A stretch of DNA of 64,000 bases from Planctomycetota bacterium. GTDB taxonomy: Bacteria > Planctomycetota > Planctomycetia > Pirellulales > Pirellulaceae. The notes beneath the pieces were generated by a model. That model was not told the origin of the DNA. It saw nothing but the letters and a program-made list of their open reading frames with translations, and ran no database searches. The translations under genes and the position numbers were made by a program. Positions 56,996 to 62,373 of this stretch are shown one piece after another. Each line of letters opens with the position of its first letter. Within the stretch, counting starts at the first letter, position 1. The stretch lies in NCBI GenBank assembly GCA_016872725.1, contig VGZC01000013.1:1-64000 (forward strand). Direction: 5' to 3'.

Positions 56996-57673
56996 CGTGG
57001 GGGAAAATGACGGTTGTCGCGGGCCGCCTCGGAAGGCGGAAGCAAGAAGCCGCGGATGTCAGCAATTGCCCCGGAGAAGTCCACAGCTGGAGCCGCCAGC
57101 TTGGGTTTCCGGAGAAATGCACTCCACTGGACGGTCCTTTGTGGATGGCTGCTGAACGATTCGGAAAACGCGACGGGTGGAAGGTCGAGGGGTGTTTTTC
57201 GACGCGAGAACGTCTTGACGATCGCTGTTGCAAGAGTGACGCCAGAGAACTCGTACTGGCGAGAAAGGAGTAGTATGTCGAAGAAGTCCTTCATCCGGCT
57301 ATTCAACTGACCAAGTTTCACCATGACCTCGAATTTCTCGGCGATGACGGTTTCACGAGGGTATCCGTAGAGGCGCGGGCGGGAGAAGTCGAGGATTGTG
57401 GGATAATCCGATTGACTCTGCCGAATTGTTCATACGGGCAAGGAAATCGATGTCCTTGGTCGGACGGCTCGCCGGGGCGTGCCACGCGACGAACATGAGT
57501 GCGCCCTTGAGTATGAAGTTCTCGACATGGGGCGATTCGGAGAGGCGGTAGAGAAACCGTTCCATCGCGAAATACTGGAGTACCTCCTGAAACGGCCGGC
57601 CGGTTTTCTTGGCATTGTTCTGGAGGCGGTGGCGAACCGAGGCGGCAAGATCTGAAATGCGGTGTTTCTTCAT
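56962..57673 (-). pseudogene. abiEii: AbiEii nucleotidyltransferase toxin, internally deleted
   Basis: Two pieces of an AbiEii/AbiGii-type toxin in different frames. The amino piece (57353-57673) starts at an ATG overlapping the AbiEi stop by 4 bases. It contains EVLQYFAMERFLYRL, FILKGALMFVAW and the nucleotidyltransferase acidic motif KDIDFLARMNN. The carboxyl piece (56962 to about 57405) resumes as YPTILDFSRPRLYGYPRET, VIAEKFEVMVKLGQLN and RMKDFFDILLLSRQYEF. About 80 residues between them, and the reading phase, are missing at about 57405. Intact relatives run about 300 residues as one chain. The toxin is probably inactive. Confidence 0.82.
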
Positions 57674-58290
57674 AGCACCGCCTCCAAGTAGGGACGAATC
57701 ACATTGGCGACGCGGCAGACCTTGGCGAAGTTGATCAGCGCGTCAATCTTCACCCGCCGTCGCTCCTTGTAGAACCGGAGGGCTTCCAAGGCCGTATCGA
57801 GGCCGAGCTTGTTGCGGTACTTGAAGCAATCGACTAGTGTTTTCTCGGGGCTGTAGATTCGTACGCGGTTTCTGTCGAGTTGGTGGACCTCGATGCCCGC
57901 TTCAAATGCCTTGCGCGTGAACCAGAACGTGCGAACAGGGGGATGCTCGATTCGCGGCGGCTCGGCGCCGCGAGGGAGTGCAAGCTGAATCTCATGGGGA
58001 ACCTGCGTGGTGAGTTCGTGAAAGGCCAGCGCGGAAATGAGGCACACGACGCCTTGCGGGACGCGAAGGGCCACCGTCACCAGATCAGGATTGGAAAGGG
58101 GTGGCGCATCCGCGAAACGGTAAAGGCCGCGGCTTAGCTGCTCAAGGACGCCAGCATCTCGCAGCTCGTAAAGCGTCCGCGGATGTATCCCAGCTTCGAG
58201 GGCTTGGCCTGTGCGCAGCACCCCTCCGTGCTCACGAAGGAGCCTGGCGATTTCCCCGGGGAGGCGGGGCTGGGGGCGCTTCCTGATCAT
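57670..58290 (-). CDS. abiEi: AbiEi family antitoxin / transcriptional repressor
   Basis: 206-residue type IV antitoxin-like protein. A winged-helix start (about 10-60: LLREHGGVLRTGQALEAGIHPRTLYELRDAGVLEQLSRGLYRF) is followed by the AbiEi core LISALAFHELTTQVPHEIQLALPR, the RIYSPEKTLVDCFKYRNKLGLDTALEAL block and a short end. In the family it represses its own promoter and counteracts the AbiEii nucleotidyltransferase. It looks complete while its toxin is broken. An inverted repeat lies directly upstream. Base composition is less GC-rich than the flanking housekeeping genes, consistent with transfer. Confidence 0.87.
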   Translation of the reverse strand: MIRKRPQPRLPGEIARLLREHGGVLRTGQALEAGIHPRTLYELRDAGVLEQLSRGLYRFADAPPLSNPDLVTVALRVPQGVVCLISALAFHELTTQVPHEIQLALPRGAEPPRIEHPPVRTFWFTRKAFEAGIEVHQLDRNRVRIYSPEKTLVDCFKYRNKLGLDTALEALRFYKERRRVKIDALINFAKVCRVANVIRPYLEAVL

Positions 58291-58772: not shown

Positions 58773-59132
58773 TCAATCCTCTCCGTTGCGCGGCCAGCGT
58801 ACCAACCACTTGTCGATACACGGGCAATTGGAACCGCAAAGCATTGGGCAGGGCGAATCAGGCAACCAATCTTCCCACTGCTCCAGTCCACATTGCGGGC
58901 AAACCCAATGCAACTTGATGCGTGGGGGCCCCGGCTCTCCCGCGTTCCAGTCAACCAGTTCGCCTGTGATGACACCAACCAGTTCGTCACGCTGGGTTAC
59001 CGTGATGCCCTCTGAGTCCGGCCCGATCTCGAGGTTCCTGTAAAGACTTTCACGATCGACATCAAAGCCAAGGGGACGCCGGCCGCACGCAGCACTAAGA
59101 ACTGTGATAGTGGTCGTTGAAATAGCCGTCAT
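58773..59132 (-). CDS. Small Cys-rich protein, possible immunity protein
   Basis: 119 residues. After an uncertain first 20 residues, an acidic stretch (DVDRESLYRNLEIGPDSEG, ELVGVITGELVDW) leads to a probable zinc site, CPQCG then CPMLCGSNCPC. It starts 9 bases after the stop of the RHS-tip gene and is the last gene of that operon, the position in which polymorphic-toxin cassettes encode immunity. I do not recognise the family. The composition (small, acidic, metal-binding) is compatible with immunity but does not prove it. The end is 65 bp from the left inverted repeat. Confidence 0.55.
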   Translation of the reverse strand: MTAISTTTITVLSAACGRRPLGFDVDRESLYRNLEIGPDSEGITVTQRDELVGVITGELVDWNAGEPGPPRIKLHWVCPQCGLEQWEDWLPDSPCPMLCGSNCPCIDKWLVRWPRNGED

Positions 59133-59141
59133 ACTTGGTGT

Positions 59142-59927
59142 TTATCTGGCTACTGCTTCCTGTTCTCGGCGCAACCGTCGTTGATATGCTTCCTCCAGCC
59201 ACCTCTGATGCTCTTCAGACAGCGTGCCCTCCAGGGAATCCGACAGCTCCAGCAATTCTTCGTCAGTCAAGCCAAGCGCCTCCAGATCAATATCTTGGCG
59301 AATAGGACGTGGAATTTCGGCGGCTTGGCACGTATTTTCAAGCGAAAACCACGTCATGATGGTTGCGAAAGCCATACCTAGGCCAAATCGACCCGCGTTG
59401 CCGGCAGCACGTCCAAGCCCCAGCCGACCTCCTGTTTTCGCTGGGTCGGCAAGGCGCGTGATTACCCATGTACCTCCAATCCGCTGAGCATTCTTCGTCA
59501 TCTCGGTAATCAACTTGGGCATGATTTTCTTGAGCGTTGACTGGGCTACGCCAGGCAACACCTTCTTGGCGTGTGTCTCGACGACATTGCATGTGAGTTC
59601 ACCGGTTGTGGGATTGAGCACCCATTTCGCGATTGCGAGTTCAGCACCTTTCTTCGTAAGAATCTTGATCTCGCCTGTATTTCGATTGGGGAGCCACTCG
59701 ATGAAGAACTTGATCCCCTTAATTCCTGTTTCCACAGTTTTCTGACCATCGAGTCCAGTTGGATCGATCATGTTGGTCGGTGAATTGCCAACGTACCGGT
59801 AGACATTGGCGTCACCGGCCTCGAAGCCCAACGGATCGTCAGCGCGATCGAAGAGCGACGAGAACTGGACAACTCGATTTCGGGGACGATATTTCGGAAA
59901 GCGGTTTACTGGGGCGGTAGTAGTCAT
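59142..59927 (-). CDS. RHS core end with toxin-like tip (orphan RHS tip)
   Basis: 261 residues. Residues 28-58 are the last RHS repeat: RADDPLGFEAGDANVYRYVG then NSPTNMIDPTGL, the sequence that in full RHS proteins ends the shell and precedes the toxic tip. Here an ATG precedes it by only 27 residues and the remaining shell is absent. The tip (59-261) starts GQKTVETGIKGIKFFIEWLPN, has lysine-rich helices (STLKKIMPKLITEMTKNAQR), a hydrophobic glycine-rich segment (FGLGMAFATIMTWF) and an acidic helical end. No known nuclease or deaminase motif is recognised. It overlaps the upstream transglutaminase-like gene by 4 bases. Either a displaced tip cassette or a stand-alone toxin. Confidence 0.72.
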   Translation of the reverse strand: MTTTAPVNRFPKYRPRNRVVQFSSLFDRADDPLGFEAGDANVYRYVGNSPTNMIDPTGLDGQKTVETGIKGIKFFIEWLPNRNTGEIKILTKKGAELAIAKWVLNPTTGELTCNVVETHAKKVLPGVAQSTLKKIMPKLITEMTKNAQRIGGTWVITRLADPAKTGGRLGLGRAAGNAGRFGLGMAFATIMTWFSLENTCQAAEIPRPIRQDIDLEALGLTDEELLELSDSLEGTLSEEHQRWLEEAYQRRLRREQEAVAR

Positions 59928-60961
59928 TGTCTGACCTCCAATATGTTGAACAGGTCGCCGATGGCTTGAGGCGACGGCTTGTGATTTTCACTCGCCGACC
60001 GTTCGTCGAAACGGCGGAAGCGGATTTCGTCCAAGCACGCCGCGTAAGTATTCGGATGGCCCGCCTCGTGCGGCTCGAAGAGCTCAGCGCCGCGCATGCT
60101 GGAAACGACCATCTGGTTCTTGTACAGCACGCGGTTCGCGGGAAAGAGTTGGCGCGCCAGGAGCCAATCCGTTTCCGACTCAAGAATCTTAGCGTCGTCG
60201 CCTTCGTGCTTTCCGACGTCTTGGATATGGCGACCACGCAGGCCGACGAAGGAACCGAGCACTTCATGCGGGCGGAGCGCCCGCAAATCGGAACCGCATT
60301 CGATGGCGATTGGCGGAAGCCTTCTCGTCTCGATCAGGTACTCGTCGGGATCAGACTTGAATCCGCCGTACCCTGACTGTGTCGCTTCGATGTTGTAGAT
60401 CGCCTCGCCGTCATCGAAACGCAGGATGTAATGAGAATTGACGCATGCGAGCGAGACTGGCCAACCCAAACGCCACCCGAAAGCGACTTGCAGCGCAGCC
60501 ATGTTGCCGCACGTGCCTTCACGGGTGTCGAGTACGCCGTTGAGAAACAGGTCAGAGGGGTTGGTATAGACGATGCCCTTTGCTTCTCGCTGGTCGCGGT
60601 TGTACTGGATGCCAACCTCCAGTTCGAGGTACTGGCAAACCATGCCCAACCGGAAGTAACGGATGTCGCTGGCGAAATCCTGCGGCGACTCGTGAAAGTA
60701 CGGTTCCCACTGCGGGAGGCAGCGTTGGCTGAAGTCCGCCACCCATCCGTTCACGATCTCTTGGTAACGGCGAATGTTGAGGTCGGCCAGCGAGGGGATG
60801 CCCTTGGCGACGATCAGGTTCATCGCCAGCGGGTCGACCGCAGCTAGCTCCTCAGGCGGCATGGCAACGAGTTGGCCGAGGGTTAGCGAGGAATAATCGC
60901 GGTGCCAGTCGATGCTGGAAGGGACCATCACCGGACACGCTAAACCCCGAGTAGGCTTCAT
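59924..60961 (-). CDS. Transglutaminase-like superfamily protein
   Basis: 345 residues. The transglutaminase-like papain-fold core has Cys151 in DTREGTCGNMAALQVAFG, His177 in NSHYILRFDDGEAIYN, and an acidic third residue about Glu192 in NIEATQSGYGG. A helical amino part with LAMNLIVAKGIPSLADLNI and FRLGMVCQYLELEVGIQYN resembles the SirB1-like branch. The enzyme could cleave, crosslink or deamidate a protein. It is the first gene of a three-gene operon with the RHS tip (ATGA overlap) and the Cys-rich gene. This makes maturation, release or activation of the RHS toxin a reasonable idea, not shown. Base composition is lower in GC than housekeeping genes. Confidence 0.75.
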   Translation of the reverse strand: MKPTRGLACPVMVPSSIDWHRDYSSLTLGQLVAMPPEELAAVDPLAMNLIVAKGIPSLADLNIRRYQEIVNGWVADFSQRCLPQWEPYFHESPQDFASDIRYFRLGMVCQYLELEVGIQYNRDQREAKGIVYTNPSDLFLNGVLDTREGTCGNMAALQVAFGWRLGWPVSLACVNSHYILRFDDGEAIYNIEATQSGYGGFKSDPDEYLIETRRLPPIAIECGSDLRALRPHEVLGSFVGLRGRHIQDVGKHEGDDAKILESETDWLLARQLFPANRVLYKNQMVVSSMRGAELFEPHEAGHPNTYAACLDEIRFRRFDERSASENHKPSPQAIGDLFNILEVRQ

Positions 60962-61161: not shown

Positions 61162-61704
61162 ATGGGTACGGGATTGACCTTCGACGAGTACATTGAGCTG
61201 ACGGCCATGCCGTTGGCGGGCGCGGACCCTGTCTTCGTCCAGGTGGTCGAGGAGGAGCGGGAGCGGATGTTCCCGATGCCGTTGGTCGTCGCGGCCAACC
61301 ACCTGCGGTCGCGGGGCTACGACTGCCGGCCGGAGTCGCTCGAGTTGCTGATCCGCAACGCCATCGTGACGCCGGCCGACCCCGACGCCTGGTCGCGGGC
61401 GGACGTTGATGAGGCCGCGCAGCATTTCGAGGACTGCGAACTCTTCACGCCCTACGCCGCGATGTGCGTGGCGCTCGGCTGCCGGTACGCCGACTTCAAG
61501 CGCCCGCTACGCGAGGCGGCGGAGCGCGAGTCGCGGAAGTACGGCCGGCGCGTTCGGGACGACGACCAGTTGTTCGTCATGCATCGGTTTCCGCCGCGCG
61601 GCGTGACGGGCGACGATGGCAAGTTCGACATCAAGCCGGCCGTCATCACGTTCACGCTCTGCGACGACATTCAGGAACGGCTCGAACGCGGCGAGGAGGT
61701 TTGA
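61162..61704 (+). CDS. Conserved element-associated protein, function unknown
   Basis: 180 residues, start supported by a strong Shine-Dalgarno. It begins MGTGLTFDEYIELTAMPL and has ERMFPMPLVVAANHLRSRGYDCRPESLELLIRNAIVTPAD and a VDEAAQHFEDCELFTPYAAMCVALGCRYADF block, an alpha-helical make-up suggestive of a small DNA-associated or partner protein. No catalytic motif seen. The TGA is followed immediately by the ATG of the sigma-like gene, so both are cotranscribed. I associate such genes with recombinase-bearing elements only through this context. Confidence 0.6.
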   Translation: MGTGLTFDEYIELTAMPLAGADPVFVQVVEEERERMFPMPLVVAANHLRSRGYDCRPESLELLIRNAIVTPADPDAWSRADVDEAAQHFEDCELFTPYAAMCVALGCRYADFKRPLREAAERESRKYGRRVRDDDQLFVMHRFPPRGVTGDDGKFDIKPAVITFTLCDDIQERLERGEEV

Positions 61705-62373
61705 ATGGATGACTCCGAACCGCGCGAGCTCGAACTGACGCCCGAACTGATTGAGTACGCCAATTCGATAGCGCTTCACGAAGCCGAGAAGCGCTGTCCG
61801 AAGTACGTCGATTATGGGGACGTCGCCCAGGAAGTGCTGCTGCACCTGGTCAGCAAGCCGCCGAAGTACGATCCCGCGAAGGGGGCGTCGGCCAAAACGC
61901 TGATCCACACGATTGTCCAGCGCGGCGTGCTCAAGTACGTCGCCCGCCAGTGCCGGCACGCCGGCCGTTTCAAGCAGGTCGATGAGGCGAAGGCGGAAGC
62001 GCCCGACGATGACGACCAACTTCGTCCTCAGCGGGATGCCGCCGAGCGTCGCCCGGTTGACCGAGAAGGAACTGCGGACCTGGGCGCTCGAACAACTCGC
62101 CCACCTCGACGACCTGGCGACGCGAACGACGGTCGACCTGAAGGACCGCCAGTTGGTCGAGGCGTTCGTCGAACGCATCGAGATCAACCCCGAGGCCAAG
62201 ACGGGTGTCGTCTACGTCGCGGCCGACCTCGAAGGGGCGCTACTTCGCAGTTCCACACGGCTACCCATAGGGGATTTCATGGGCAACCACGAATGGTGCT
62301 TCTACGGCTGGCGCGAAGGGGCCGCGCACGTGTTCCTGGGACCGGGTGTAGTCTCTCTGGTGGTCGAGTTTAG
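61705..62373 (+). CDS. Sigma-70-like protein, native part ends near 62020
   Basis: The first about 105 residues resemble region 2 of a sigma-70 family factor: EYANSIALHEAEKRCPKYVDYGDVAQEVLLHL and GASAKTLIHTIVQRGVLKYVARQ. They are followed by AEAPDDDD. From about 62020 the frame becomes arginine-rich and non-native while recombinase-like sequence runs in another frame. The region 4 helix-turn-helix is missing. An ggaggtttga leads into ATG 61705. It is probably a truncated factor produced by a deletion that fused it, out of phase, to the recombinase tail. Confidence 0.6.
   Translation: MDDSEPRELELTPELIEYANSIALHEAEKRCPKYVDYGDVAQEVLLHLVSKPPKYDPAKGASAKTLIHTIVQRGVLKYVARQCRHAGRFKQVDEAKAEAPDDDDQLRPQRDAAERRPVDREGTADLGARTTRPPRRPGDANDGRPEGPPVGRGVRRTHRDQPRGQDGCRLRRGRPRRGATSQFHTATHRGFHGQPRMVLLRLARRGRARVPGTGCSLSGGRV
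62009..62268 (+). pseudogene. Serine-recombinase-like carboxyl tail
   Basis: A frame with LTEKELRTWALEQLAHLDDLA, LKDRQLVEAFVERIEINPEAKTG (in parts) and GALLRSSTRLPIGD resembles the extreme carboxyl end of large serine recombinases. The catalytic resolvase domain and zinc domain are absent. The last residues SSTRLPIGD are encoded by the right inverted repeat itself. The frame then continues into the methylase fragment. Confidence 0.6.
62269..62345 (+). pseudogene. DNA methyltransferase, right fragment
   Basis: DFMGNHEWCFYGWREGAAHVF then LGP continues the methylase domain that breaks off at 58691. The expected following motifs (DLW, NP-x-x-MVHLTEKP) are missing; after GP the sequence becomes non-native and runs into a strong stem-loop. 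It is in the same frame as the recombinase tail. Confidence 0.65.

What the first reader, a model, noticed from the sequence alone, without database searches (positions are those of the whole stretch)
58773..60961. Transglutaminase-like / RHS tip / small Cys-rich protein operon
Three overlapping or nearly touching minus-strand genes: a papain-like transglutaminase-fold enzyme with Cys-His-acidic residues, an RHS core end with an unassigned 200-residue tip, and a small Cys-rich acidic protein. The order (enzyme, toxin tip, possible immunity) suggests a polymorphic-toxin module in which the transglutaminase-like enzyme processes, crosslinks or activates the toxin. I do not know such a three-gene system described as a unit.
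Basis: inference. Interest (0 to 1): 0.8.

Follow-up and report, generated by a model that had tools for sequence, protein, structure and literature searches.

The report
Papain-fold enzyme paired with Rhs tips
In planctomycete bacteria, a gene for a cysteine-enzyme-like protein usually sits just before a gene for a small, swappable, toxin-like protein that keeps only the end of the usual Rhs shell; the pairing is conserved but its purpose is not yet known.

Summary
The three genes are real and at the stated coordinates. Gene 1 is a Transglut_core2 protein with an intact Cys-His-Glu triad. Gene 2 carries only the end of the Rhs core (the double-DPxG "plug") plus a tip; there is no Rhs shell.

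Of 83 family members of gene 1 from 62 genomes, 73 are followed on the same strand by such a shell-less plug-tip gene; five of the ten misses end at a contig edge. Other transglutaminases: 0 of 8. In 18 enzyme-carrying genomes, truncated Rhs cores lie next to gene 1 in 17 of 30 cases, full cores in 1 of 85. Tips are polymorphic: 66 tips form 56 groups, and at 60-90% gene-1 identity 0 of 23 pairs share a tip. A minority match known toxin families.

The third gene is not conserved; it is a plausible, unproven immunity gene.

I read this as a new variant of polymorphic toxin system: a papain-fold enzyme, menin-like in predicted fold, acting in trans on the constant plug of shell-less Rhs toxins. 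The linkage is shown; the catalytic step, toxicity and immunity are inferred.

The parts
59924..60961 (-). Gene 1: Transglut_core2 (papain-fold) protein, 345 aa, with TPR-like helices behind the core in the predicted model
   Evidence: ORF; PF13369; family conserved, 83 loci; model pLDDT 82.5
60509..60511 (-). Codon of C151, presumed nucleophile
   Evidence: Cys in 83 of 83 family members
60431..60433 (-). Codon of H177, presumed catalytic His
   Evidence: His in 81 of 81 members with a residue there
60386..60388 (-). Codon of E192, presumed acidic third residue
   Evidence: Glu or Asp in 78 of 79 members with a residue there
59142..59927 (-). Gene 2: shell-less Rhs plug-tip protein, 261 aa, start overlapping the stop of gene 1 (ATGA)
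   Evidence: ORF; TIGR03696 residues 30-59
59751..59840 (-). Rhs core end ('plug') with two DPxG motifs, DPLG-X20-DPTG
   Evidence: motif read from the sequence
59142..59750 (-). Variable tip, 202 aa (stop included in the coordinates), no known family
   Evidence: same tip at the end of a complete Rhs protein in G021
58773..59132 (-). Gene 3: Cys-rich acidic 119-aa protein, candidate immunity gene
   Evidence: ORF; decayed copy beside the tip end on contig C16, dN/dS about 0.12

Best explanation
A polymorphic-toxin cassette widespread in Planctomycetota. A constant papain-fold (transglutaminase-like) enzyme is followed by a short toxin gene that keeps only the C-terminal plug of the Rhs core (the double-DPxG segment) in front of a swappable tip, and then usually by a variable gene that may give immunity. 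SHOWN: gene order and linkage; absence of the Rhs shell; tip exchange at the end of the plug; intact catalytic residues; matching membrane targeting of both partners in a few loci. INFERRED: the constant enzyme recognises the constant plug in trans and processes it (cleavage or transamidation), and so matures or loads whichever tip follows; the tips are toxins used against other bacteria; gene 3 protects the producer. Shell and self-cleavage would thus be replaced, or assisted, by a separate enzyme.
For: 73 of 83 family enzymes are followed by a plug-tip gene, 0 of 8 other transglutaminases. Truncated Rhs cores lie beside the enzyme in 17 of 30 cases, full ones in 1 of 85. 66 tips form 56 groups; 0 of 23 enzyme pairs at 60-90% identity share a tip; in G597 two loci are 81% identical in DNA through enzyme and plug and diverge about 10 bp before the tip. 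Cys 83 of 83, His 81 of 81, Glu/Asp 78 of 79. Some tips match toxin families, e.g. CDI EC869-like endonuclease in L067 (E 1.2e-21). Signal-peptide plug genes go with membrane-anchored enzymes: 3 of 5 by threshold, 4 of 5 with one judged by eye, 0 of 68 others. One enzyme can precede two plug-tip genes (L060, L070, L186).
Against: No activity was tested. The triad is also kept in the 8 control transglutaminases, so it is a family trait and not special to this role. 60 of 73 plugs keep the first DP of the self-cleavage motif, so the enzyme may not be needed for cutting. The window's tip has no recognisable toxin domain and its model is poor (pLDDT 44.7). Five enzymes with room downstream lack a plug gene: L057 (broken enzyme), L065, L076, L082 (frameshifted), L177. 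How the tips leave the cell is unknown for the majority without a signal peptide.
Confidence: 0.5

Rival explanations
1. The enzyme-fold protein is a dedicated chaperone or scaffold and not an active enzyme: like menin it binds a short peptide (the plug), keeps the tip inactive or hands it to a secretion route.
For: Best solved fold is menin (VIA-align Z 16.2 over 257 residues, next family Z 8.4), called a scaffold protein whose human form probably is inactive (PMC10318531, passages). TPR models match behind the core in some members (TPR_2 in 6 of 26).
Against: Cys, His and Glu/Asp are kept almost without exception, which a pure scaffold would not need; human menin lacks the Cys.
Confidence: 0.27
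2. The plug-tip genes are silent orphan cassettes, a reservoir for recombination into complete rhs genes, and the enzyme gene only hitchhikes.
For: The window's tip occurs at the end of a complete 2137-aa Rhs protein in G021. The own genome holds other Rhs ends preceded by an in-frame TAG. Orphan Rhs tips are known elsewhere (PMC3967940, listing).
Against: Constant enzyme partner in 73 of 83 loci; start codon at a similar point of the core in 44 of 73 by a loose pattern; no Rhs shell upstream in 74 of 75 loci; purifying selection on the enzyme; matched targeting signals.
Confidence: 0.1
3. The enzyme is itself the antitoxin (immunity) of the tip gene, and gene 3 is unrelated.
For: The enzyme is encoded with the tip gene in most loci, while gene 3 is not conserved.
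Against: One constant protein would have to neutralise 56 unrelated tip groups. In L067 a possible CdiI gene follows the CDI-endonuclease tip (E 0.0083, below Pfam's cut-off).
Confidence: 0.06

Closest known systems
Rhs polymorphic toxins (shell, autocleaving plug, variable tip)
   Same: Double-DPxG plug directly before a variable tip; sharp exchange point; known toxin families among the tips; the window's own tip ends a complete Rhs protein in G021
   Different: No shell and no N-terminal trafficking domain in the plug-tip gene; separate papain-fold gene in front
Inactive N-terminal transglutaminase domains of RHS polymorphic toxins (PMC3482391, passages)
   Same: Transglutaminase fold associated with Rhs toxins
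   Different: There in the same protein, after a signal peptide or TM helix, before RHS repeats, with triad residues lost; here a separate gene, triad kept, no shell
Orphan rhs-CT cassettes
   Same: Core end plus tip without a shell
   Different: Own start codon, own upstream enzyme, no rhs shell upstream in 74 of 75 loci
Bacterial Transglut_core2 proteins (PF13369; E. coli SirB1 recalled as a member)
   Same: Same Pfam family, 26 of 26 members scanned
   Different: A subfamily tied to Rhs plug-tip genes; other transglutaminases that match the same profile over the core only are not (0 of 8)
Menin (PF05053)
   Same: Predicted fold over most of the length: VIA-align Z 16.2, 257 residues, rmsd 4.3
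   Different: No PF05053 match in the Pfam scan of the window protein; catalytic Cys kept, which human menin lacks (PMC10318531, passages)

Membership tests
Rhs polymorphic toxin | YD-repeat shell | tested here: not met
   Gene 2 is 261 aa with about 60 residues before the tip; no RHS_repeat match in Pfam; no shell upstream of the enzyme in 74 of 75 loci
Rhs polymorphic toxin | Core end with two DPxG motifs before the tip | tested here: met
   DPLG-X20-DPTG in gene 2; weak TIGR03696 match. Papers give X18 or X19 (PMC10684867, passages)
Rhs polymorphic toxin | Variable C-terminal tip exchanged at the core end | tested here: met
   56 groups among 66 tips; breakpoint about 10 bp before the tip in L156/L157
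Rhs polymorphic toxin | Toxic tip | not testable with these tools
   Known toxin domains in some relatives, none in the window's tip
Rhs polymorphic toxin | Cognate immunity gene downstream | tested here: inconclusive
   Downstream genes vary; weak CdiI match in L067; tip and gene 3 share the decayed C16 copy
Transglut_core2 (PF13369) | Profile match above the curated cut-off | tested here: met
   27.8 against 23.5 bits for the window protein; 26 of 26 members match at E 0.01 or better
Transglut_core2 (PF13369) | Cys-His-acidic triad | tested here: met
   83 of 83, 81 of 81, 78 of 79; geometry in the model not measured
Inactive transglutaminase domain of RHS toxins | In the same polypeptide as RHS repeats, triad residues lost | tested here: not met
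   Separate gene; triad kept
Menin | Same overall fold as solved menin | tested here: met
   VIA-align Z 16.2 on a predicted model; Foldseek best E only 5.6e-3
Menin | Sequence membership of PF05053 | tested here: not met
   Only PF13369 listed for the window protein at E up to 1 and no PF05053 among the families listed for the 26 members

The most novel reading that the evidence does not exclude
A bacterial protein with a menin-like fold and an active Cys-His-Glu site reads the conserved Rhs plug as a peptide tag and cleaves or joins it in trans. Shell-less plug-tip proteins would be matured, or mounted on a carrier (perhaps an Rhs shell made from another gene), at the protein level, so that tips could be switched without DNA rearrangement: a split Rhs system, and a first function for bacterial Transglut_core2 proteins.
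Probability: 0.3. Interest if true: 0.85.

Novelty: new variant of a known kind. Interest (0 to 1): 0.72.

Why it matters
In the Rhs toxins studied so far the shell encloses the tip and the plug at its end cuts it loose. Here is a set of Rhs-type genes that have no shell and keep only the plug, in most cases with a separate papain-fold gene in front. This gives a subfamily of Transglut_core2, whose bacterial role a 2023 review calls unknown (PMC10318531, passages), a concrete substrate to test. It ties a menin-like fold to a bacterial conflict system, and it offers 56 tip groups, the majority without a recognised domain, as candidate toxins.

Tried and rejected
Tip identity: no Pfam or NCBIfam match; the AF2 model from 3 sequences had pLDDT 44.7 and was not searched. 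A hit to the tip in G327 (E 9e-4, with a stop inside) lies opposite a 376-aa reading frame and is probably chance. Gene 3: no PADLOC match, none in 72,556 plasmid records at E 0.01; the weak hit in G022 (30%, E 2.8e-4) was not followed. The genome-contig scan used two peptide patterns from three near relatives and found 3 loci. Enzyme inserted into an rhs gene: rejected, a shell-like hit upstream in 1 of 75 loci only (L065). Ordinary transglutaminase with chance neighbours: rejected, 0 of 8 controls. One immunity family downstream: rejected.

Counting notes. The 83 enzymes are those of at least 125 bits among the loci fetched plus the window; three further fragments of at least 125 bits (G631:C121, G129:C143, G456:C255) were not fetched. 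The number of genomes (62) was counted by hand from the locus list. Near-duplicate enzymes: L158/L159 and L075/L078. Some enzymes are split by a stop or frameshift (L146, L151, L166, L178, L192, L193) and were counted by their best piece. The plug profile was built from 19 plugs of the same loci; 54 of the 73 positives were not in it. Positives had at least 15 bits; six are under 25 (L158, L159, L166, L168, L174, L188). The motif count is a simple pattern: of its 13 misses of the first DP, L188 is an artefact of a short hit, and L158/L159 keep an Asp without Pro; of the two misses of the second Asp, L181 is cut by the contig end. Tips under 40 aa were left out (66 of 73 used). Of 56 downstream genes 53 were scanned (L159, L176, L183 left out, top 25 of 89 families shown). 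In one search the table was [[68,2],[0,3]] (Fisher p 1.6e-4); L189's enzyme missed the threshold (1.52 against 1.6) and I added it by eye; L188's enzyme shows no helix. Enzymes L061 (contig end) and L065 (no plug gene) also have an N-terminal hydrophobic stretch (by eye) and are outside that table. The five signal-peptide cases come from four genomes and three families. The 18 genomes were chosen because they carry the enzyme, so 17 of 30 is not a rate for the phylum.

Literature: searches listed no paper on this gene pair; abstracts and passages only were seen. Two searches for menin mostly matched words such as 'meningitidis'; search 72 (whole word) led to PMC10318531.

Full report
WHAT IS THERE. 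The window lies on contig C13 of a 5.2-Mb genome. The named contigs nearest to gene 1 are planctomycete metagenome assemblies, two of them titled Pirellulales and Pirellulaceae. Three minus-strand genes are confirmed: gene 1 (60961-59924, 345 aa), gene 2 (59927-59142, 261 aa, ATGA overlap) and gene 3 (59132-58773, 119 aa). Gene 1 matches Pfam Transglut_core2 above its cut-off. Gene 2 matches the Rhs core end weakly, over 30 residues only. Gene 3 matches nothing significantly.

LINKAGE. Three close relatives of gene 1 (G003, G058, G401; 69, 62 and 67% identical) are each followed, with the same overlap, by a short gene that begins with a similar Rhs end and then a quite different tip. A fourth close relative (G162, 76% over residues 1-199) is broken and has no plug gene. 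I searched 396 genomes of the order, 397 of the class and 392 of the phylum (overlapping samples) with enzyme alignments and fetched the surroundings of hits by their enzyme score. Scores in the phylum are bimodal: a family matching over most of its length, and other transglutaminases, generally longer, that match over the core. Of 83 family loci of at least 125 bits (62 genomes), 73 have a plug gene on the same strand. Five of the other ten end at a contig edge within 126 bp (L061, L080, L081, L083, L191); L057, L065, L076, L082 and L177 have room but no plug gene. Of 8 other transglutaminases (102-121 bits) none has one. In the reverse direction, 18 genomes that carry the enzyme hold 115 Rhs-core hits; truncated cores (model start 26 or later) lie within 1.5 kb of the enzyme, on its strand, in 17 of 30 cases, and full or nearly full cores in 1 of 85. 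An Rhs-shell-like hit lies upstream of the enzyme in 1 of 75 loci with at least 1 kb there (L065), so the enzyme has not simply been inserted into rhs genes.

THE ENZYME. C151 is Cys in 83 of 83, H177 His in 81 of 81 with a residue there, E192 Glu or Asp in 78 of 79; the 8 control transglutaminases keep the same residues, so the triad is a trait of the wider family. All 26 aligned members match Transglut_core2; TPR models match behind it in some (TPR_2 in 6 of 26), not in the window protein itself. The AF2 model (pLDDT 82.5, pTM 0.82) has menin as its best solved fold: Foldseek E 5.6e-3, with nothing at 0.001 or better; VIA-align Z 16.2 over 257 residues, rmsd 4.3, next family (TglA) Z 8.4. 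A review says the roles of bacterial Transglut_core2 proteins are unknown, calls menin solely eukaryotic and a scaffold, and says the human protein lacks the catalytic Cys (PMC10318531, passages). Its reference list names a paper on one menin pocket that binds both MLL and JUND (title seen only). A shared fold shows no function; I use it as a lead, the Rhs plug being the obvious peptide for such a pocket.

THE PLUG AND THE TIPS. In complete Rhs toxins the plug is an aspartyl protease with two DPxG motifs, and changing either Asp of Tse5 blocks release of its tip (PMC10684867; for the second motif also PMC8636562; passages). By a simple pattern 60 of 73 short genes keep the first DP and 71 the second Asp (with the artefacts told under counting notes). 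In 44 of 73 the start codon lies at a similar point, in front of the YDPxxGRF-like segment; the window belongs to 24 where that segment is altered or the start lies elsewhere, and 5 have a signal-peptide-like start. Tips are highly variable: 66 tips fall into 56 groups. Of 23 enzyme pairs with 60-90% identity none share a tip; the two pairs above 90% do. Two loci of one genome (L156, L157) are 81% identical in DNA over 1182 bp of enzyme and plug, and the match ends about 10 bp before the tip. Tips match a CDI EC869-like endonuclease (L067, E 1.2e-21), a protein-glutamine glutamyltransferase family (2 tips, best E 1.5e-41), WHH, AHH and colicin-type nucleases, Tox-PL-2, phospholipase A2, lipase or hydrolase families and peptidase M76, several only weakly. 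Sixteen Pfam families were listed for 66 tips, each in one or two, so the majority have none.

TARGETING. Five plug genes begin with a signal-peptide-like stretch (L058, L060, L168, L188, L189). By my thresholds the enzyme has an N-terminal membrane helix in three of these and in none of the 68 others; by eye L189 makes four. This suggests that both proteins work in one compartment, although only a few independent events are involved. Three loci have two plug-tip genes behind one enzyme (L060, L070, L186).

THE WINDOW'S TIP AND GENE 3. In 346 genomes of the order the tip was found here, at the end of a 2137-aa complete Rhs protein of G021 (28% over 165 aa) and, probably by chance, in G327. The G021 protein has 14 RHS-repeat stretches, so this is a genuine Rhs tip that elsewhere is carried by a full shell. 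The next gene there codes for a 325-aa protein without a Pfam match. A second place in the own genome (C16) holds a decayed, colinear copy: a stretch found upstream of the module, the end of the tip, and gene 3, with enzyme and plug missing. Gene 3 differs there by 12 synonymous and 8 non-synonymous codons of 66. Tip and gene 3 therefore travelled together at least once, which fits toxin and immunity but does not prove it. Behind other tips lie LRR (5 of 53), WD40 (2 of 53), HEAT-like and small membrane proteins and others.

HOW IT MOST LIKELY WORKS. One constant enzyme serves many unrelated tips, so it should act on what they share, the plug. I think it most likely that it recognises the plug and modifies it, by cleavage or transamidation, in place of or in addition to the plug's own cleavage, to mature or load the tip. 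Loss of the first DP in about a dozen of 73 plugs would fit a take-over of cleavage by the enzyme; its presence in the other 60 shows that this is not general. The scaffold rival explains the linkage as well, but not why the triad is kept. The orphan-cassette rival does not explain the constant partner.

COMPARISON. [quoted passage not shown] The present genes differ in each of these points: separate gene, kept triad, no shell. My searches listed no paper on the pair, with the limit that most subscription papers are not held. I file it as a new variant of polymorphic toxin systems.

Noticed in passing
window 57353-58290 (-): AbiEi-like gene (PADLOC E 5.2e-75) followed by a short AbiEii-like gene that covers only about residues 5-88 of a 294-residue model, so probably a truncated type IV toxin-antitoxin pair.
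   Followed up: partly
window 61162-62370 (+): Divergent 180-aa unknown gene and a sigma-70-like gene; the same pair stands beside the enzyme in G003 (L014 2738-3859). The window copy matches only Sigma70_r2, while the G003 copy also has an HTH match, so the window gene's 3' end differs.
   Followed up: partly
window 62066-62274 and L004 (contig C16): A 209-bp stretch 85% identical between the two places and colinear with the tip end and gene 3. It looks to me like the end of a serine recombinase gene (recalled; Pfam finds nothing), which would make the module part of a mobile element.
   Followed up: partly
own genome C6, C56, C61 (L007, L011, L009): Three Rhs-core ends with an in-frame TAG just upstream, all near contig ends: possibly silent orphan tips.
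   Followed up: no
G067:C50 1598-11707: Six nearly complete Rhs-core hits in a row within about 10 kb, in frames of 112-590 aa: an apparent array of Rhs tips without the enzyme nearby in my hit lists.
   Followed up: no
L076 (G077:C60): Enzyme followed at 13 bp by a 297-aa protein without a plug and without a Pfam match: the partner may do without the plug here.
   Followed up: partly
L065 (G351:C82): Enzyme with an N-terminal hydrophobic stretch, no plug gene downstream, and an Rhs-shell-like hit 1.3-1.5 kb upstream.
   Followed up: no
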